The notes under the pieces are model-generated. The model searched no databases, was not told the origin of the DNA, and saw only the letters and a program-made list of their open reading frames with translations. A stretch of 64,000 bases of DNA from Chryseobacterium sp. JJR-5R (GTDB taxonomy: Bacteria > Bacteroidota > Bacteroidia > Flavobacteriales > Weeksellaceae): NCBI RefSeq assembly GCF_034047335.1, contig NZ_CP139137.1, forward strand, positions 1,798,001-1,862,000, given 5' to 3'. Below, piece after piece: positions 23,061 to 36,442 of this stretch; the first letter of the stretch is position 1, and every line of letters begins with the position of its first letter. The position numbers were made by a program, and so were the translations under genes.

Positions 23061-23921
23061 TTAATTATTATAGATACGCCTGATTCTTAAGTATTTTGTG
23101 AAATCTTCGTTCGCCTTCTTTAATATTCCGGCATTGGTACCGTAATCAGGCGTAGCTGATCCGGGTTGGGTGATCACCACTTTTATACGGTCATTACTGT
23201 TAAAGCGCAGGATGGTACGCGGCAATATAACGGTTTGTAACTGATTGGAGACACCGATATCATAGGGCGTTGCCGTTCCTGACACCGGCGTCCAGGTAGT
23301 CCCGTTATCTGCAGACTTCATCACGGTAAACGCAGTATAGGTATAATTTGAATTATCGGCTGTCACACTCCGTAACGGATTGAAACTGAAATTGGCAACG
23401 ACTACATAATCGCCCGTTATTTTGAGCCTGAATTCATTGCCCCCGGATAGCATCTCGATATCAGCCGGATTGTCAACCGTTACCTCATTGGCTGCCCATA
23501 CTACGGGGACTTCAAAATTTTCATCCGTGTTGATATTGTTAAGCTGGGTGGCAGTAAGCGGCTGTGTAGCCGTAGACCTTATGACATACTGCCCGGACTG
23601 TGTAAAAGAAGTAACTTCCGTAAGCGTTGTGAATTTCTGCCAGACTGAACCCTGCCAGAAATAAATGGAATTAGGAATTACGGCATTGCCGGCAGTCCCG
23701 CTTGCCGTAAGGTTTACAACCATCAGGCCGGCAGCAGGGCTGGGTATGGTGGAAATGTCATTCCTGCCTGTTAAGTTCACCCTTGGTAAAAGGAAGCCTT
23801 TGTTGGAGGCAGAGATATGAAGCGCTGCAGATGAGTTGGGAGTTGCTGTTCCTATTCCCACCTGTCCGTACAACACGGCAGATAATAAAAACACCAGGCT
23901 TGTCTTGATTTTGATAATCAT
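23061..23921 (-). CDS. Secreted module-plus-jelly-roll-like protein, paralog 3
   Basis: 286 residues with a signal peptide ending near YGQ. The mature N-terminus is the module GIGTATPNSSAALHI, NKGFLLPRV, IPSPAAGLMVVN. Then comes a beta-rich domain with a Gly-Asp-Tyr strand (LKITGDYVVVANFSFNPL) and ILRFNSNDRIKVVI, reminiscent of a C1q/TNF-like jelly roll (inference). It is the third of three tandem paralogs, 23 nt after the second. Function unknown; an exposed binding protein is likely from the architecture. Confidence 0.7.
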   Translation of the reverse strand: MIIKIKTSLVFLLSAVLYGQVGIGTATPNSSAALHISASNKGFLLPRVNLTGRNDISTIPSPAAGLMVVNLTASGTAGNAVIPNSIYFWQGSVWQKFTTLTEVTSFTQSGQYVIRSTATQPLTATQLNNINTDENFEVPVVWAANEVTVDNPADIEMLSGGNEFRLKITGDYVVVANFSFNPLRSVTADNSNYTYTAFTVMKSADNGTTWTPVSGTATPYDIGVSNQLQTVILPRTILRFNSNDRIKVVITQPGSATPDYGTNAGILKKANEDFTKYLRIRRIYNN

Positions 23922-23944
23922 AGTGTGATTTATATATTTGAGCT

Positions 23945-24859
23945 TTAGTTAATTTTCTGGAAACGCAGCAGCCGCGAGTAGGCCAGGCCGGTTCCCGATT
24001 CGATGTTAAGGACACTGCCTGAGGGCGATGTACCGTGGTTTATGGCAGACCCTTTGGCGATAACGGTCCTTACCAGGCTGTTTTCTGCCAGATTTACAAC
24101 GAAGGGGGCGATAATGACCGAACGGTTCCTGTCTCCTGTGCCCACTCCCCAGATAGAACTGGATTTGGAAATATTCGTCCAGTTTACCCCGTTATCCGTA
24201 GAAACCTGTACAATAAGGTCCAGCGCCGCAATACAGGTGCTTTCGGTAGCCTGTGTGGTACATGTGGTGGAAACCCAAGGATTATATCCCACATAACCTG
24301 TGATTTCATAATTTCCGCCGGACAGTATCCTGAAATTGTTATTGGACAGAGAGACCCTGTTCCCCACATCTACAGACATGGCACCGGTGCCGGCCGGATC
24401 AAAGGTAACCACTGCGCTTGCTCCGTTGTTGAAATCGGTTTTATTAAGCTCCTGATTTCCTCTGTTGGCCACAATAAATACCTGGGGATATAATTCTGTT
24501 TCAAAAGTCTTTGAAGTGGCAATATCCACCCAGCTTGTTCCCGTCCAATAATAGAATACATCCGCTCTGATCTGTGTATCCGTGGCAGAATTTACCGTGT
24601 TATAGACAAACAGCCCTACGGCAGGGTTGGGAATGGTGGTGGTATCCATACGGTTCTGTAATGCTATCCGTGGGAACAGCATCCCTTTTTTCTGGTTCGC
24701 CGGCAGGGAACTCACGTCTACATCCAGCAGGGCTGAAGGATGGGGGCTGAGTGTCCCGATGCCTATTCCCTGTGAAAAGGCATAATTTCCAACTAATAAG
24801 AGACCTGTAAGAATGGTGTTACGAAGTTTTTTGCGGTATAATTTATTGCTGGATATCAT
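23945..24859 (-). CDS. Secreted module-plus-jelly-roll-like protein, paralog 2
   Basis: 304 residues. The signal segment (TILTGLLLVGNYAFSQ) is followed by GIGIGTLSPHPSALLDVDVSSL, shortened here as the module start, then KKGMLFPRIAL and IPNPAVGLFVYN. The C-terminal half is beta-rich (GGNYEITGYVGYNPW; VQVSTDNGVNWTNI; NSLVRTVIAKGS), parallel to its neighbours. Its start overlaps the end of paralog 1 by 17 nt, so the two are translationally coupled. Cysteines in TTCTTQATESTCIAA could form a disulfide. Function unknown. Confidence 0.7.
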   Translation of the reverse strand: MISSNKLYRKKLRNTILTGLLLVGNYAFSQGIGIGTLSPHPSALLDVDVSSLPANQKKGMLFPRIALQNRMDTTTIPNPAVGLFVYNTVNSATDTQIRADVFYYWTGTSWVDIATSKTFETELYPQVFIVANRGNQELNKTDFNNGASAVVTFDPAGTGAMSVDVGNRVSLSNNNFRILSGGNYEITGYVGYNPWVSTTCTTQATESTCIAALDLIVQVSTDNGVNWTNISKSSSIWGVGTGDRNRSVIIAPFVVNLAENSLVRTVIAKGSAINHGTSPSGSVLNIESGTGLAYSRLLRFQKIN

Positions 24860-25754
24860 AATCTAATAAGGTAAGCGTTAAACTTTTTGATATAGGCGTC
24901 TTTGAGGATGCGGTAATGGAGGGAAGGGGAGCGGCAGGCGCTGTGGAAGGGTTTTCCCCGTGGAGGCTTGAAGTATCGGTAATCGCAAAGGGGTTCTGAA
25001 CCACAAGCCTGATCAGCTGCCCGGCCGTTAAATTGATAGGGGTGGAAATCAGCATGGTGGTTTTCAGCAGATTACTGGTCCTGGCTCCCCAGGCCGTACG
25101 GTTTCCGATAACGTCATTCCATGTCGAGCCGTTATCACTGGAAAGCTGAAGCTTCAGGTTAAGGAAGCATCCCCTTTGCGGGGTGCCGATGGTAGTACGG
25201 TTCGGATTGTAATTGATATAGGAGGAAACTTCATACAGCCCGGTGATATTAATCTTGAAATTATTGCCGGATTTTGAAGCTATACCTCCTGAATTGATGG
25301 CAATGTCAGAATCGGCAAACGTTATCGGTATGCCTCCGTTGGCAGCACTCGTAGCATTAATTGCAGCATAGGTAAAAGACTGGGCTGAATTGGCATTCAG
25401 GCTGATCACCCTGTTATTGATAAAGGTCTGCAGTACCGTGGTCAGCCCGAAATCGATCCATTCTGTCCCGTTCCAGTGGTAAAATCGGTTGCTGAATACC
25501 TGATTGGGGAAAGTTCCGGCGTTTGCCAGGTTAAACACCAGCAGCCCGATGGCCGGTGAAGGAATTGTCTGTACATCACGCGAACCCAAGAGGTTTACTC
25601 TCGGGCCCAGGAAGCCTTTTTTATTGCCGGAAGGCAGGCTGGATGCGTCTATGTCCAGTACAGCTGACGGATGGGGCTTAGAGGTTTGTATCCCTACCTG
25701 GGATTTGCAGCAGTACGACGCAAGAAATAAGATAGATAAAAATAACTTACTCAT
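24843..25754 (-). CDS. Secreted module-plus-jelly-roll-like protein, paralog 1
   Basis: 303 residues, first gene of the minus-strand trio. A signal segment (LFLSILFLASYCCKSQ) precedes VGIQTSKPHPSAVLDID, KKGFLGPRVNLL and IPSPAIGLLVFN. The second half repeats the beta-rich plan of its paralogs (INITGLYEVSSYINYNP; LQLSSDNGSTWNDV; LIRLVVQNPF). It is divergent from cas9 with the tracrRNA gene between them, but I see no functional link to CRISPR. Sequence divergence among the three suggests old duplication rather than recent. Confidence 0.7.
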   Translation of the reverse strand: MSKLFLSILFLASYCCKSQVGIQTSKPHPSAVLDIDASSLPSGNKKGFLGPRVNLLGSRDVQTIPSPAIGLLVFNLANAGTFPNQVFSNRFYHWNGTEWIDFGLTTVLQTFINNRVISLNANSAQSFTYAAINATSAANGGIPITFADSDIAINSGGIASKSGNNFKINITGLYEVSSYINYNPNRTTIGTPQRGCFLNLKLQLSSDNGSTWNDVIGNRTAWGARTSNLLKTTMLISTPINLTAGQLIRLVVQNPFAITDTSSLHGENPSTAPAAPLPSITASSKTPISKSLTLTLLDYDIQQ

Positions 25755-25974: not shown

Positions 25975-26061
25975 AAACAAAAATCCCCCGTATGGTAAGA
26001 CGAGGGGGCTTAAATGTTTTCACAACGGAATAATCCTTATTGTGAATTGCTTTCAAAATTA
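25975..26061 (-). ncRNA. tracrRNA
   Basis: Read on the minus strand, a ~24-nt anti-repeat (26064-26040, containing TTTTGAAAGCAATTCACAA) is complementary to the 5' end of the CRISPR repeat as transcribed leftwards. It is followed by a short hairpin (AAGGATTATTCC) and then a strong terminator hairpin, CCCCC (26008-26004) with GGGGG (25989-25985), with a T-rich tail ending near 25975. This is the II-C tracrRNA layout: anti-repeat, small nexus-like stem, terminator. A consensus promoter sits immediately upstream. The RNA guides RNase III processing of crRNA and binds Cas9. Exact ends are estimates. Confidence 0.88.
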
Positions 26062-26163: not shown

Positions 26164-29100
26164 ATGAAAACGATATTAGGACTGGACCTGGGAACCAATT
26201 CTATTGGCTGGGCACTCGTTGAAATAGACCAAGACAGTAAAACCTTGAGAATAATAGCGCTAGGCTCTCGTATTATTCCGATGGACGGACAAGAGTTTTC
26301 AAAATTTAATGCAGGACAAAAAATAGAAAGTGCTGCTGGTAATAGAACAACTTTGCGTCGTGCAAGAATTACTAAAGAACGTTATCTGCTTAGAAGAGAT
26401 CGTTTACACTTAGTATTAAATTTATTAGAAGCATTACCTGGACATTATAAAATTGAAATTGATTTTGAAAAGGATGGTAAAAAATGTGGGCAGTTCAAAG
26501 ATGGAAAAGAACCTAAAATAGCATATTTGCCGACCAGAAATTTAGAGAATAGATATGATTTCTATTTTGAAGAAGCTTTTAATGAAATGATTAAAGATTT
26601 ACAAAAAGTGAATCCTGAAATTAAAAATGAAAAGAAAAAGCGTGTTCCTAAAGACTGGACAATCTATTTTCTGAGAAATAAAGCAATGTCTGAACGAATT
26701 TCATTAGAAGAATTGGCTTGGGTTTTATTAAGTTATAATCAGAAAAGAGGAACAGATTTAGACGAAATAGAAAATGAGGATGAAAAATCTGATGAAATAA
26801 AAGAACAGCTCGACTTAAAAGTTATAAAAGTTGAACAGAATAATGATGTAAATGGAGATTTCTTTGAAATTATATTAAATGATGCTGAGAATTTTAAATA
26901 CAAAGAATACACAACTGAACAATTGACTTTTAAGGACGATGTTAAAGAGGTTACGAAAATCTTAAAATTAGATGACGCAGGTAATATAATTAATGAAAAA
27001 ACAACTTACCATATAAGTGATTTATATAATTTGACGCTTGCTAACATCAAGCATACTGATATTGATGATAAAAAAGCTAAGCACAAATACGACTTTATCT
27101 ACACAAATGGTTGGAAGACCGAAAAGAAAAAAGAAAAGTTTGATGTAACGTATCAGAAATTAGAAAAGCAAATTAAGGAAGAATCCAAAGTTATTACAGA
27201 ATTATTTGTTATTTCAAATAAATACGATTTCACTGGAAAACCAGAATCCATCGTTCCTAATATAAAATTACCGGATTTCAATAGTGAAGGAAGTAAAGAC
27301 TGGACTTTGCTTAAAAAGAAAACAGAGAAAGATGTCATTTCTTATAATATTGCAAATGGGTTTCTCAATAAGGATGGAAGTGCAAAGCATTTCATATCGC
27401 CGAAGATTTATGATGTATTAAAAAATGATGCAAAAACAGGAGAAAGAACCAGAATCATCGGAGGCCTTTTTCAAACGATTGACAGAAAGTTTTATCGGGA
27501 AGAATTGTATCAAATAATTAATACGCAAAGAAAATTCCATACATCAACTTTAGATAACAAAGATACTTTTGAAAAATGCGTAAAACTGCTTTATCCACAC
27601 AATGAAGAGCATTCCAAAGCTTTGATGGAAAATAAACAAGCGTTAACCAATTTATTGGTTGAAGATATTTTATTATATCAACGACCGTTAAAATCAAAAA
27701 GGTCTGAAGTTTCTGATTGTAAATATGAAATTGATTATTGGAAAGAAGACGTGAATATTTCAACAGGCGAGATTATCGAAATTCCTGTTTATAAAAAAGC
27801 TGTTTCAGCTTCACATCCTTTGTTTCAGGAGTTTAGAATTTGGGATAAAATACACAATATCAGATTGATTCAATTGGAATCTGAAGATGCTCAAGGGAAT
27901 TCTAAAACGAACGTAGATATTACTTCTCAGTATTTTAAACCTGAAAACTATCAAGCTTTATTCAATCATTTCAATAGTAGGTCAACAGTGGGTATAGATG
28001 ATTTTTTAACATTTTGCAAGGAACAGTTTAAGCTAGATATTGGTAAAAGAGGAGAAAGAAAAATTCTATGGAATTATCCGGTAGAAGAAGAGTTTAAAGG
28101 AAACGAAACGAGAAAAAATTTTGAAATTAGATTTAAACGATGCGGATTTGAAGATTTTAATAGGTTTATGACTCAGCAAAAAGAAATTGAGTTATGGCAT
28201 TATTTATATTCTGTAACTTTTGCTGAAAGGAAAAAAGTCAGTCAGGTCAAAGATGATTCCAATCCAAAATTTGGAAAAACAGGTATCTGCAACTTTTTTA
28301 ATAAATATTTTAAAAATGAAAATATTGCACCAGAAGTTTTAGAAAAATTATGTCGGGATTTTGAAAACTATCCAAAGTTTGCGTCTAAATATGCTTCTTA
28401 TTCTATAAAAGCGTTAAATAAAATCCTGTCCGTGATGCGTGTTGGAGAAAATTTCTTGACTTCTAGGGCAATGAGTGAAAAATGGCAAGAAAAGTATATC
28501 GATAGAGCTGATACAATTCTCAAAAAAAATAAAGAAATAGATTGGTCTGCAGAAGATATTGATTTAAGAAATGTTGTATTAAATGATGTAAATATGAGAA
28601 CCGGAGAAATTCCTTTTCCTAAAGGTCTTTTTAATACGTTTAAAAACTTTGAATCAGTTGATAATTTTCAATTTTTGAATTTAACACAGGCTTCTTATTT
28701 TGTTTACGGAAGACATTCTGAATTGGCACAAGCAAAATATTGGAACAGTCCCGATAAAATAAGAGAGGAAATAACGAAAGAATTGAAACATCATTCTTTA
28801 AATAATCCAACTGCCGAAAAAGTATTGAAAGAAACCCTGAAAGTTGTTGCTGATATTTGGGAAATCCATGGAAATTCAGAAGAAAAATTCTTTAATGAAA
28901 TTCATTTGGAAGTCGCAAGAGAATTACAGAAATCCAATCAGGAAAAGAAAGATATTGTAGAGCGTCAAAAAAATAGCAGAGCTGAAAATAACAGGCTGAG
29001 GAATATTTTGGAAGAATTTTTAAGTAGTTCTTCCTACAAGGCAAAAAGAGGAAACCAAGATCATTTTGAACGATTAAAAATTGTAGAAGATGGAGCTAAA

Positions 29101-31580
29101 ATAAGAAGTTATTTGGAGAAAGATTTTTATTTAAATAACAAAGATAAGTTCAGTAAAACCGATATTGAAACAATTCTCAAAAAGACAAAAATAACAAAAA
29201 CCGATTTTGAAAAATACAAACTTTGGATTGAACAAGGATACAAATCGCCCTATACTGGTAATTTAATCAATTTGACTGATTTGTTTGACGGCAACAAATA
29301 TAATATTGACCATATATTTTCCAGAGCTGCTATTACGAACGATTCGCTAAACAATAAAGTGGTTTGTGAAGCTGTAATTAATAGGTTTAAATCGCATAGA
29401 ACAGGAAGGGAGTTTATTGCGCAATTTGGTGGAAAGGCACATACTGTTTTTGACGAAAAATTAAATAAAAATGTAATGTTTAATCTTATTGATGAAGATG
29501 CTTACGTGAGTTTGGTAAAATCTCAATTTAAAGATTCTAAAAAATTAATTCTTCTCTCAAAAGATGTTCCGAAAGGATTTACCGAAAGCCAGCTTAACAA
29601 TACTAAATATATTGCCAGAAAAGCAATGGAGCTATTAAGTCATATTGTAAGAGAAGATGGCGAAGTAGAATTTAGGTCAAGGAATGTACTTCCTGTATCC
29701 GGTGCTGTTACCGATAGACTTAAAAAAGAATGGAAAATAAATCAAATCTGGACAGAACTCTTAAAACCAAGATTTGAAAGGCTTAATAAAATCCATAACT
29801 CACAAGATTTTGGAAACTACAGCATTTCTAAAAGCGGACACCAATATTTCGATATTAATATCAAGAATATTTTAGAGAAAAATGACAAGTTTGATTTAAA
29901 GAGATTAGACCATCGCCATCACGCTTTAGATGCTTTAATTATTGCTTTGTGTACTGAAAATCACGTTCAGTATTTCAACAACATCAATTCTGGAATTACA
30001 AATAAGAAGAAAGAAAAGATGGAGGCGATAAAAAAGCAAAGGGCAGGAATCAAAAGGCAAATAATGTACAGCGAAAAAGACAAAGAAAACCCGAATGAAA
30101 AAGTTTGGAGATATATGTTGCCTGGTTCATTTAGGAAAAAAGAAGCCTTGAATAACGAAAAGGATTCTGTAGTTGATATTTTATGGACAAATAATTATTC
30201 TGCTAATGAAAGTAAAGATTATAAAAATATAATTCTGGAATCCTTAGAAAACTGCATTGCTTCATTTAAAAATGACTTTAAAATAGTTTCAAAATCTTCA
30301 AACAAATATGAAAGCTATTATGATGAAAAAGGGGATTTGAGGTTAAATAAAGCGGGCAAACCTCAAAAGGAACTTATCAGTCAGAATAATAAAAATAACA
30401 AGCACTGGAGTGTTAGAAAACCTTTGCACAAAGACAATCCTTCAAGTAGGATAGAGACGGGTATTCTGGCTAAAGTTTGGTATAGCTCAATGGATTCTTT
30501 GGAAGACATCGTTGATGAAGGTTTACGTAATAAAGCAATAAGTATTTTTCAGAATATTGATGAAAATGAAGATGTTCTAACTTTTCAAAAAACTAAATAT
30601 AAGGAAGCTAAAGAACTGTTGAAAATGATCGAAAAGAAAGAACAACAGCTTAAAAAAGAAAAGCAATTATCATCAAGAGAAGATATAATTAAAAGTATTG
30701 AAAAACTAAAGTCAGATTATGAAAATGAATATTTTCCATTTTTAATTTTCGAAAATGAAAAATTAGTTGAAAAGCTAAATTTTAATGAAATTAAATATCG
30801 AAAATACCAACCACTTATGGACTTAGCAGAGCGTAAAAGTCAAGCGAAAAAGATAGTTACGCTTGATGCAATGAAAAAAAAGCTTGAAAAGATTTCAGAT
30901 GCAGAAATTAAGAATGAGCTATTGGATCATTTAGAACAATCAGACAATGACATAGATATTGCTTTCAGTGTTGAAGGAATTGAGAATTTTAATAATAAAA
31001 GAAAAGAAGCTGGTAAAAATATTTTAAAGAAAATTCCAATTTCGGAAAGTGGTTCTGGAAAATATACAGTAGGAAATAAATTTTCAAATAGGCACAAATG
31101 GGTCGAAGCTGAACAAGGTACTAATCTATATTTTGCAATCTACGAAGATAAAAATAAAATTAGAAATTTTGAAAAAATACCTCTTAGAACTGCAATAAAC
31201 AGAGTTATCAATCACGAGGAAATTGTTCCTAAATTCAATAAAAAAGGGTGTGAGTTATTATTCGTTCTTTCTCCTAATGATTTAATTTACTTGCCAACAA
31301 TGGAAGAATTTACAAGTCCCAATCCTATGCCTATTTCAAATTTGAATAAGTATAGATTTTTTACTGTTAACGACTTTTCAAAAACAATTTACTTTTCACC
31401 AGTAAATATCTCAAATAGTATAATTTCCAAAGAAATTGATATGAATTATGATAATAAAAAAGATAAAATTACTGGCTCCTTTGATACAAAAACAGCAAGT
31501 TTTGACGGTGTTCAAATAAAAGATTTTTGTTGGAAAGTTGAAACTAACAGATTAGGGGAAATAATAGAAATAATCAACCA

Positions 31581-31584
<4 letters not shown>
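26164..31584 (+). CDS. cas9: Cas9, type II-C, unusually large
   Basis: 1806 residues, RNA-guided DNA endonuclease. RuvC-I LGLDLGTNSIGWA (D8), Arg-rich bridge helix (about 61-80), recognition lobe to about 890, RuvC-II IHLEVAREL (E916), HNH YNIDHIF (D1049, H1050; N1073), RuvC-III RLDHRHHALDAL (H1253, D1256). All nuclease residues are present, so both strands should be cut. About 550 residues follow RuvC-III, with a Lys/Glu-rich coiled-coil-like stretch near 1480-1540 and a WED/PAM-interacting-like end. The known II-C range is about 1000-1500 residues, and even Francisella Cas9 has 1629. The gene is much AT-richer (AAA, TTA, AAT codons) than cas1 and cas2. A weak promoter-like TACATTTA is at 26135. 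The stop overlaps cas1 (ATGA). Confidence 0.97.
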
Positions 31585-32809
<1,225 letters not shown>

Positions 32810-32866: not shown

Positions 32867-35800
32867 GCTGTGACTAATCACGAAGATAGTAAATTTTGAA
32901 AGCAATTCACAACTAGATTTAGTCGATTTTCATAGCAACGCCTGCTGTGACTAATCACGAAGATAGTAAATTTTGAAAGCAATTCACAACAGTTCTGAAC
33001 TCGTTAAAGCTGAAGGAATTGCTGTGACTAATCACGAAGATAGTAAATTTTGAAAGCAATTCACAACCTTTCTGAGCTTCTACCGTTCGTTTTGCTTGCT
33101 GTGACTAATCACGAAGATAGTAAATTTTGAAAGCAATTCACAACTAAATTGTCTTCGCAAATTAAAACGTCTCCGCTGTGACTAATCACGAAGATAGTAA
33201 ATTTTGAAAGCAATTCACAACTCCAATCAAGCGGGTTTCTGCACCGGTTTTGCTGTGACTAATCACGAAGATAGTAAATTTTGAAAGCAATTCACAACAA
33301 TCCGTTGTAATCTACCAGAGCCAAAGTAGCTGTGACTAATCACGAAGATAGTAAATTTTGAAAGCAATTCACAACCGCATGGTTGATCTACTGTGATCAT
33401 GAGATGCTGTGACTAATCACGAAGATAGTAAATTTTGAAAGCAATTCACAACCACATTGGTCATGGCCTCCGCAATTTCCAGGCTGTGACTAATCACGAA
33501 GATAGTAAATTTTGAAAGCAATTCACAACTACCATACCTTTGAGTATAATTAAAAAGATGCTGTGACTAATCACGAAGATAGTAAATTTTGAAAGCAATT
33601 CACAACTATCTCATTATCCATTAATCATTAATAAACGCTGTGACTAATCACGAAGATAGTAAATTTTGAAAGCAATTCACAACACCTCATGACTTCAGAC
33701 CCAGGATGGCAGAGCTGTGACTAATCACGAAGATAGTAAATTTTGAAAGCAATTCACAACCCGATGCAACCACAGCAGTTACAGGAGAAGGCTGTGACTA
33801 ATCACGAAGATAGTAAATTTTGAAAGCAATTCACAACTCAGTGGAATATCAAAACTCCAGCATCAGAGCTGTGACTAATCACGAAGATAGTAAATTTTGA
33901 AAGCAATTCACAACCAAAGATACTGACATATTGACAAAGATACTGCTGTGACTAATCACGAAGATAGTAAATTTTGAAAGCAATTCACAACGACAATAGA
34001 AATTCTATTGAAAGCACAGCAGCTGTGACTAATCACGAAGATAGTAAATTTTGAAAGCAATTCACAACTGTGCTCAGAATTTTCCAGTTTCAATGTTGGC
34101 TGTGACTAATCACGAAGATAGTAAATTTTGAAAGCAATTCACAACAACCTGATACGCTTCTGATTGAAGCATTTTGCTGTGACTAATCACGAAGATAGTA
34201 AATTTTGAAAGCAATTCACAACCAACCTGATACGCTTCTGATTGAAGCATTTGCTGTGACTAATCACGAAGATAGTAAATTTTGAAAGCAATTCACAACA
34301 AGTTCAGCTCTCTCACTTTCTCTGTGGTGGCTGTGACTAATCACGAAGATAGTAAATTTTGAAAGCAATTCACAACAAACAGGTTTCAGTGTAATGAGGA
34401 CCAGAAGCTGTGACTAATCACGAAGATAGTAAATTTTGAAAGCAATTCACAACCTGGGTAATCAGTTTGTTGAAAAGATTTGTGCTGTGACTAATCACGA
34501 AGATAGTAAATTTTGAAAGCAATTCACAACCCGTTTGCCCGGAGGGAGCCTGCTTACTGGGCTGTGACTAATCACGAAGATAGTAAATTTTGAAAGCAAT
34601 TCACAACCCATCCGCTGAAGAGCAGCATCCAGGAGCAGCTGTGACTAATCACGAAGATAGTAAATTTTGAAAGCAATTCACAACGCAGCAAACTGGGTTT
34701 CAATCTCCAACATTGCTGTGACTAATCACGAAGATAGTAAATTTTGAAAGCAATTCACAACTGCGATTCGGACATTCTAAAATCAAGTTCAGCTGTGACT
34801 AATCACGAAGATAGTAAATTTTGAAAGCAATTCACAACGAAAATGCCGTCATAATTGGAATAAGGAATGCTGTGACTAATCACGAAGATAGTAAATTTTG
34901 AAAGCAATTCACAACCTTTCGAGATCTGCCGGCTCCAGTTTATGTGCTGTGACTAATCACGAAGATAGTAAATTTTGAAAGCAATTCACAACAATATGAG
35001 GTCCTTTTACTAACTTTTGCAAGCTGTGACTAATCACGAAGATAGTAAATTTTGAAAGCAATTCACAACGAGGCAATCTATCAATTGATGACCTTGTAAG
35101 CTGTGACTAATCACGAAGATAGTAAATTTTGAAAGCAATTCACAACCAGGCTATTGAGCAACTTAATAAAAATGAAGCTGTGACTAATCACGAAGATAGT
35201 AAATTTTGAAAGCAATTCACAACCATATTGCTCAACTTCATCAACATCCCCATGCTGTGACTAATCACGAAGATAGTAAATTTTGAAAGCAATTCACAAC
35301 CGCTGTGTTCGGCTCCCAGATATTCTGTAAGCTGTGACTAATCACGAAGATAGTAAATTTTGAAAGCAATTCACAACATTCTTCTATGAACTCCTTTACC
35401 TTAGCAAGCTGTGACTAATCACGAAGATAGTAAATTTTGAAAGCAATTCACAACTTAAATACACTCAGGTTTATAATATTGTACGCTGTGACTAATCACG
35501 AAGATAGTAAATTTTGAAAGCAATTCACAACAAAATCAAAACACGGCATTCATATTTACTCGCTGTGACTAATCACGAAGATAGTAAATTTTGAAAGCAA
35601 TTCACAACAATATCAGTAATGCAATATGTTATAAAATTGCTGTGACTAATCACGAAGATAGTAAATTTTGAAAGCAATTCACAACTAAGATTTGCTGTTC
35701 CAAATTTTCAATTCTGCTGTGACTAATCACGAAGATAGTAAATTTTGAAAGCAATTCACAACTTGAATAGACTGCTCTAATATTGCTAGGAAGCTGTGAC

Positions 35801-36442
35801 TAATCACGAAGATAGTAAATTTTGAAAGCAATTCACAACGATGAAGGAAATCGCCTCTTTAGTTGTTCCGCTGTGACTAATCACGAAGATAATAAATTTT
35901 GAAAGCAATTCACAACTAGACCGATCATGGGAAGATACTCAAGAACGCTGTGACCAATCACGAAGATAATAAATTTTGAAAGCAATTCACAACAAAAGAA
36001 GAATGCCAACCGACAGATGGATAGCTGTGACCAATCACGAAGATAATAAATTTTGAAAGCAATTCACAACTAAACTTCTCCAGATCAGCATGCGTAAACT
36101 GCTGTGACCAATCACGAAGATAATAAATTTTGAAAGCAATTCACAACGGTTTATAGATATGCGGTCACGTGTGGCAAGCTGTGACCAATCACGAAGATAA
36201 TAAATTTTGAAAGCAATTCACAACGGATATTGACACTGAGACACAAAGTACACTGCTGTGACCAATCACGAAGATAATAAATTTTGAAAGCAATTCACAA
36301 CACACTGGAAAAGGTGAATGGTTAGGAATAAGCTGTGACCAATCACGAAGATAATAAATTTTGAAAGCAATTCACAACCGCCTCGGAGATGCATTCGATT
36401 ATGTTATAGTTGTGACTAATCACGAAGATAGTAATTTTGAAA
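32867..36442 (-). CRISPR. Type II-C CRISPR array: 46 full repeats, 46 spacers, degenerate terminal repeat
   Basis: Repeats of 47 bp start every 77 bp from 32867 to 36332, so every spacer I measured is 30 bp. A degenerate 47th repeat (36409-36442) keeps only one side of the unit. On the plus strand the repeat begins GCTGTGACTAATCACG and ends AGCAATTCACAAC. The tracrRNA anti-repeat shows that crRNA is read from the minus strand, each repeat starting GTTGTGAATTGC. Repeats 1-39 are identical. Repeat 40 (35870) has G23A. Repeats 41-46 have T9C and G23A. Spacers 17 and 18 (34146-34175 and 34223-34252) are the same target shifted by one base. Confidence 0.98.

What the first reader, a model, noticed from the sequence alone, without database searches (positions are those of the whole stretch)
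26164..31584. Giant type II-C Cas9 of 1806 residues with all catalytic residues kept
Sequence shows RuvC and HNH residues D8, E916, H1050, N1073, H1253 and D1256 intact. There are about 820 residues between bridge helix and RuvC-II and about 550 after RuvC-III. Family knowledge: II-C Cas9s are usually 1000-1500 residues and Francisella Cas9 is 1629, so this is an extreme member. The post-RuvC-III part holds a Lys/Glu-rich coiled-coil-like insert (about 1480-1540) that may be a new domain or an added PAM/guide-binding element (inference).
Basis: partly seen in the sequence, partly recalled or inferred. Interest (0 to 1): 0.75.

Follow-up and report, generated by a model that had tools for sequence, protein, structure and literature searches.

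The report
Giant Cas9 with doubled recognition domain
This is a real, intact and unusually large Cas9 enzyme from a Chryseobacterium; it belongs to a known family but to a widespread giant branch in which one unit of the guide-binding lobe is duplicated, and its target-tag-reading tail looks like an exchanged cassette.

Summary
In detail: window 26164-31584 (+) is one intact 1806-aa ORF with RuvC and HNH residues D8, E916, H1050, N1073, H1253 and D1256, followed by cas1, cas2 and an array of 46 repeats. It is a type II-C Cas9; the nearest solved structure is CbCas9 (1442 aa).

It is not a lone extreme. It sits in a supported clade of Cas9s, 1658-1893 aa where complete, scattered over Bacteroidota.

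The size has three main sources. (1) A beta-strand unit inserted in the REC lobe is present twice: that region is 88-105 aa in 64 ordinary relatives and 165-205 aa in 25 doubled ones, and profiles detect the two copies. A doubling arose at least once more, beside CbCas9-type enzymes. (2) The rest of the REC lobe is enlarged.

Identity to that relative (Pedobacter MAG) is about 87% up to ~1425 and 35-43% beyond: an exchanged or fast-diverging PAM cassette. Cas1, Cas2, repeat and tracrRNA are native to the genus, so cas9 was apparently replaced in situ, a known process. PAM, activity and the doubled unit's role are untested.

The parts
26164..31584 (+). cas9, type II-C, 1806 aa, intact
26164..26448 (+). 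RuvC-I (D8) and bridge helix, residues 1-95
26800..27030 (+). beta-REC copy 1, residues about 213-289 (strands 211-269 in the model)
27031..27300 (+). beta-REC copy 2, residues about 290-379 (strands 281-354 in the model); closer to the single copy of ordinary relatives
28864..28938 (+). RuvC-II around E916
29248..29406 (+). HNH_4 match, residues 1029-1081 (H1050, N1073)
29566..30111 (+). RuvC_III match, residues 1135-1316 (H1253, D1256)
30451..31581 (+). WED/PAM-interacting tail, residues about 1430-1806; identity to the nearest relative collapses at its border
31581..32474 (+). cas1, type II (TIGR03639)
32471..32809 (+). cas2
32867..36378 (.). CRISPR array: 46 repeats of 47 nt, 45 spacers of 30 nt; a further spacer and a degenerate repeat follow to about 36450; pre-crRNA inferred from the - strand
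25976..26060 (-). tracrRNA: anti-repeat 26060-26040, nexus, terminator-like hairpin; core of about 46 nt conserved in the family

Best explanation
It is a full-length type II-C Cas9 under purifying selection, from a clade of giant Cas9s in Bacteroidota, encoded in a complete cas9-cas1-cas2-array locus with a tracrRNA. It most likely works as other II-C Cas9s do (inferred from family knowledge): a minus-strand crRNA pairs with the minus-strand tracrRNA, the C-terminal tail reads a PAM, and HNH and RuvC each cut one DNA strand. Its extra length is mainly three things: a tandem duplication of the beta unit inserted in the REC lobe (shown at profile and predicted-structure level), an enlarged remainder of the REC lobe (shown), and a helical hairpin in the WED part of the tail (predicted). 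The tail from about residue 1430 behaves as a cassette that differs sharply between otherwise close enzymes (shown), which most likely resets PAM preference (inferred). The cas9 gene was apparently swapped into a resident Chryseobacterium locus while cas1, cas2, repeat and tracrRNA stayed (shown by discordant identities; direction inferred). The doubled beta unit probably enlarges the part of the REC lobe that contacts the guide or heteroduplex or times nuclease activation; this last step is a guess.
For: Family and residues. Nearest solved relative CbCas9, phmmer E 6e-193; N-model Z 28.7 (650 residues, rmsd 7.2) and C-model Z 13.8 (254 residues, rmsd 4.5) against CbCas9 chains. Doubling: region 198-379 is 88-105 aa in 64 ordinary relatives and 165-205 in 25 doubled ones, no overlap; copy 1 against copy 2 profiles 94.5%, E 8e-8; copy 1 against the single copy 97.3%, E 2e-11; copy 2 against the single copy 99.1%, E 4e-19; column-shuffled controls never above 8%; in L058 the two copies are 49% identical over 82 aa, E 4e-22; two successive beta units in a confident model. 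Clade: 21 giants together at SH-aLRT 100, doubling needs two changes, one origin disfavoured, AU p 0.03. Tail: 76-96% identity per 50-residue block to L065 up to 1400, then 33-53%; 40 of 188 pairs with core identity of at least 75% have tails under 55%; dN/dS 0.07 before the break. In situ swap: Cas1 87-91% and Cas2 96-98% to genus loci whose Cas9 cores are 31-38% identical, but Cas1 47% to L065 whose Cas9 core is 87%; nearly the same repeat occurs with 1444-aa and 1674-1688-aa Cas9s in the genus. Guide RNA: 22-bp repeat:anti-repeat duplex in a joined test molecule, z -7.9.
Against: Within the window protein the two beta copies are not recognisable by pairwise BLAST, only by profiles. The C-terminal model is moderate (mean pLDDT 71.9) and the hairpin lies in its weaker part. 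No protospacer was found, so the PAM and activity are unknown. No donor for the tail was found; the best matches are 37-48%, so fast divergence rather than recombination of the tail is not excluded.
Confidence: 0.82

Rival explanations
1. The length is an artefact: a read or assembly error joins two ORFs.
For: None found beyond the unusual size.
Against: Same frame in a Pedobacter MAG over 4275 nt at 84% DNA identity, relatives of 1749-1893 aa, dN/dS 0.07 through the core, domains in order across the whole protein.
Confidence: 0.01
2. Residues 198-379 are one beta domain that grew by insertion, not a tandem duplication.
For: The two copies in the window protein share no significant pairwise similarity; beta strands are easy to align by chance.
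Against: Profile matches of copy 1 to copy 2 and to the single-copy region, with 0 of 100 shuffled controls above 50% in either test, bimodal lengths with no intermediates, clear copies in L042 and L058 (43-49% identity), two beta units in the model.
Confidence: 0.12
3. The Lys/Glu-rich insert at 1480-1540 is a newly acquired functional domain that binds guide RNA or PAM DNA.
For: Charged helices beside the WED part; a related stretch may exist in L062 (tail 34% identical over 410 aa).
Against: No significant Pfam or PDB match, much shorter in the relative L065 whose core is 87% identical, length of this region varies from 25 to 140 aa in the family, predicted simple hairpin.
Confidence: 0.1
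4. The tail differs from the Pedobacter enzyme because it evolved fast in place, not by exchange of a cassette.
For: No donor with high identity found; PAM-reading domains are expected to evolve fast under phage pressure.
Against: The drop is abrupt, between about residues 1415 and 1445, and the same pattern occurs in 40 of 188 close pairs.
Confidence: 0.35

Closest known systems
CbCas9 (PDB 8iyq, 8wmm, 8wr4), PcrIIC1-associated II-C Cas9, 1442 aa
   Same: Same domain order; best sequence and structure match over both halves.
   Different: One beta-REC unit instead of two, shorter REC remainder, no WED hairpin; the window locus has no gene beside cas9, cas1 and cas2, so no PcrIIC1-like partner is seen there.
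Fp2Cas9 of Flavobacterium psychrophilum (PMC12609912), 1548 aa, PAM SNAAAG
   Same: Large Flavobacteriales II-C Cas9 with REC, HNH and PI domains.
   Different: 1548 aa against 1806; its own sequence was not aligned here. A 1548-aa relative from Flavobacterium cupreum (L098) has a single beta-REC.
In situ Cas9 shuffling in Flavobacteriales II-C loci (PMC12669027, Extended Data Fig. 9)
   Same: Closely related cas1 with distantly related cas9, as seen here.
   Different: That paper shows the process in general; whether it includes this locus was not checked.
PI-domain exchange between close II-C Cas9s (PMC9433092 and works cited there)
   Same: Close cores with different PAM-reading domains; swapped PIs change the PAM.
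   Different: Shown there in relatives of the smaller Nme1Cas9; here inferred from sequence only.

Membership tests
Cas9 | Split RuvC plus HNH nuclease with catalytic residues | tested here: met
Cas9 | Arginine-rich bridge helix and REC lobe | tested here: met
   Helix 57-87 and REC lobe aligned with CbCas9 and SaCas9; PF16593 itself only E 0.022, under its cut-off
Type II-C system | cas9, cas1 and cas2 only, no csn2 and no cas4 in the locus | tested here: met
Type II-C system | tracrRNA complementary to the repeat | tested here: met
Type II-C system | Cas9 groups with II-C Cas9s in a tree against II-A, II-B and II-D | not tested
   The tree holds only relatives; the nearest solved enzyme is the II-C CbCas9
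Cas9d / II-D | Score over the NF049971 cut-off | tested here: not met
   61.7 bits against a cut-off of 375
PcrIIC1-associated Cas9 | pcrIIC1 gene in the locus | tested here: not met
   No further gene between cas9, cas1, cas2 and the array; the genome outside the locus was not searched for it
Giant doubled beta-REC clade (named here) | Region 198-379 of doubled length and place in the 21-row clade | tested here: met
Active Cas9 | PAM-dependent cleavage of DNA | not testable with these tools
   Needs biochemistry

The most novel reading that the evidence does not exclude
The doubled beta-REC unit is a functional innovation, gained at least twice, that gives giant Cas9s a property ordinary II-C Cas9s lack, such as tighter target checking or dimerisation without a partner like PcrIIC1.
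Probability: 0.2. Interest if true: 0.65.

Novelty: new variant of a known kind. Interest (0 to 1): 0.45.

Why it matters
It shows that much of the size spread of these II-C Cas9s comes from duplicating one recognition-lobe unit and from changing the PAM-reading tail, not from unknown add-on domains. The pair window/Pedobacter MAG, about 87% identical over the first 1400 residues with different tails, is a natural swap experiment for PAM reading. The two separate doublings give a comparative test of what the beta unit does.

Tried and rejected
PAM from spacers: the array searched against phage and plasmid records gave only matches of the repeats and chance-level spacer matches, and seven spacer cores gave no exact match in viral contigs. 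Relatives in viral contigs: none with the patterns used. Rfam: only CRISPR repeat families below their gathering scores. A first copy-against-single profile test was contaminated by giants left in the single-copy set and was repeated with a clean set. The CbCas9 paper itself is not held, so its own domain names were not checked. Literature searches found no description of a doubled beta-REC (one search failed on a search term), which does not prove there is none.

Full report
Observation. Window 26164-31584 (+) is a single ORF of 1806 aa. The named catalytic residues are at the stated positions and invariant among the first giants aligned. Cas9, RuvC_III and HNH_4 models match over their cut-offs. 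cas1 and cas2 follow with small overlaps, then 46 repeats of 47 nt with 45 spacers of 30 nt, one more spacer and a degenerate last repeat. The repeat occurs as an array nowhere else in the genome. The organism is a Chryseobacterium in the broad sense: a same-genus genome (G007) carries the contig that is named Chryseobacterium artocarpi in L080 (inference from contig length and place).

Not an artefact. A Pedobacter MAG (L065) encodes a 1749-aa homologue, 84% identical in DNA over 4275 nt in the same frame. dN/dS over residues 1-1400 is 0.07 (synonymous changes are near saturation, so the value is rough).

Size among relatives. In the genus, the closest matching frames are mostly about 1410-1490 aa, with five proteins of 1669-1688 aa besides the window. 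Among the 80 best-ranked loci from 84,980 species genomes, the window's own clade holds nine relatives, the eight complete ones 1749-1893 aa; further giants of 1658-1755 aa occur in Flavobacteriaceae, Dysgonomonas, Prevotella and others. The window is the sixth longest. The 80 are the best matches to this query, so the share of giants is not a census.

Where the extra length lies. Region 198-379 is 88-105 aa in 64 rows and 165-205 aa in 25. The doubled region holds two units of similar pattern, roughly L-K-V-x-x-V, then Y-x-x-x-L-x-N-G, then D-x-x-G. Profile comparisons link copy 1 to copy 2 (94.5%), copy 1 to the single unit (97.3%) and copy 2 to the single unit (99.1%); 100 column shuffles of copy 1 against the single unit and against copy 2 gave at most 1.4% and 7.9%. 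In the separate pair L042 and L058 the copies are still 43% and 49% identical. The AlphaFold model of residues 1-860 (mean pLDDT 81.8) shows two successive beta units at 211-269 and 281-354 between the REC helices 181-193 and 380-397. The rest of REC (561-843) is 275-315 aa in the window's clade against 215-263 aa in most others.

Tree. On core columns without the beta unit and the tail, 21 giants form one group with SH-aLRT 100; L042 and L129 are doubled inside the CbCas9-like side. Holding all doubled rows together is disfavoured (AU p 0.03; a quick tree, and the group was named after the lengths were seen). Copy 1 of L058 resembles its own copy 2 far more than copy 1 of the giants, which also speaks for a separate doubling.

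Tail. Identity to L065 is 76-96% in every 50-residue block to 1400, then 33-53%; the drop is sharp between about 1415 and 1445. The tail aligns with CbCas9 1121-1428 (Z 13.8, 254 residues, rmsd 4.5), so it is an ordinary WED and PAM-interacting region with a hairpin of two helices added (1471-1499, 1505-1523, moderate confidence). In 40 of 188 pairs of relatives with cores at least 75% identical, tails are under 55% identical. Exchange of a cassette is the simplest reading; fast divergence is not excluded. Swapping PI domains is known to change the PAM in other II-C Cas9s (PMC9433092).

Replacement of cas9 in the locus. Cas1 is 87-91% and Cas2 96-98% identical to loci of the genus whose Cas9 cores are 31-38% identical, while Cas1 is only 47% identical to L065, whose Cas9 core is 87% identical. 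Several genus loci lie beside the same Tex and YceI genes. Repeats almost identical to the window's accompany Cas9s of 1444, 1674 and 1688 aa. The tracrRNA core of about 46 nt is 84-100% identical across the family, which may let a resident guide RNA serve an incoming Cas9 (inference). In situ cas9 shuffling in Flavobacteriales is already described (PMC12669027).

Guide RNAs. The anti-repeat 26040-26060 and the typical order anti-repeat, nexus, terminator-like hairpin lie on the minus strand, so crRNA and tracrRNA are inferred to be minus-strand transcripts. This was not tested by expression data.

Judgement. A real and intact new variant of a known kind. The length is ordinary for its clade; the doubled beta-REC is the part worth a specialist's time. 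What the doubling does is unknown, and no activity or PAM data exist.

Noticed in passing
L145 1497-1601 (Riemerella phage RAP44, HQ396194.1 about 31637-31741) and 11 more phage records: Unannotated intergenic mini-CRISPR in Riemerella phages: one repeat about 92% like the window's, one 30-nt spacer identical in the phages, and a degenerate repeat. The spacer matches at 90% a tape measure gene of another Riemerella phage record, PP067980, so it may act against rival phages.
   Followed up: partly
window 34146-34175 and 34223-34252: Adjacent spacers 17 and 18 are the same target shifted by one base, as if acquired twice with a slipped PAM position.
   Followed up: no
window 23061-25754 (-): Three neighbouring minus-strand ORFs of 286-304 aa with similar beginnings and no Pfam match lie between the YceI gene and the tracrRNA.
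   Followed up: no
L067 6200-6820, L075 13313-13960, L077 13076-13705, L079 13860-14519, L062 10868-11458: Genes that look like REP-associated transposases (HIYN ... CLMPNHFH motif) sit between cas9 and cas1 in several relatives; L065 has DUF6155 and pRiA4 ORF-3-like genes there.
   Followed up: partly
window 29308-29310 (D1049): Next to the catalytic H1050 the window has Asp where the majority of the first giants aligned have Glu (IEHIFPQ).
   Followed up: no
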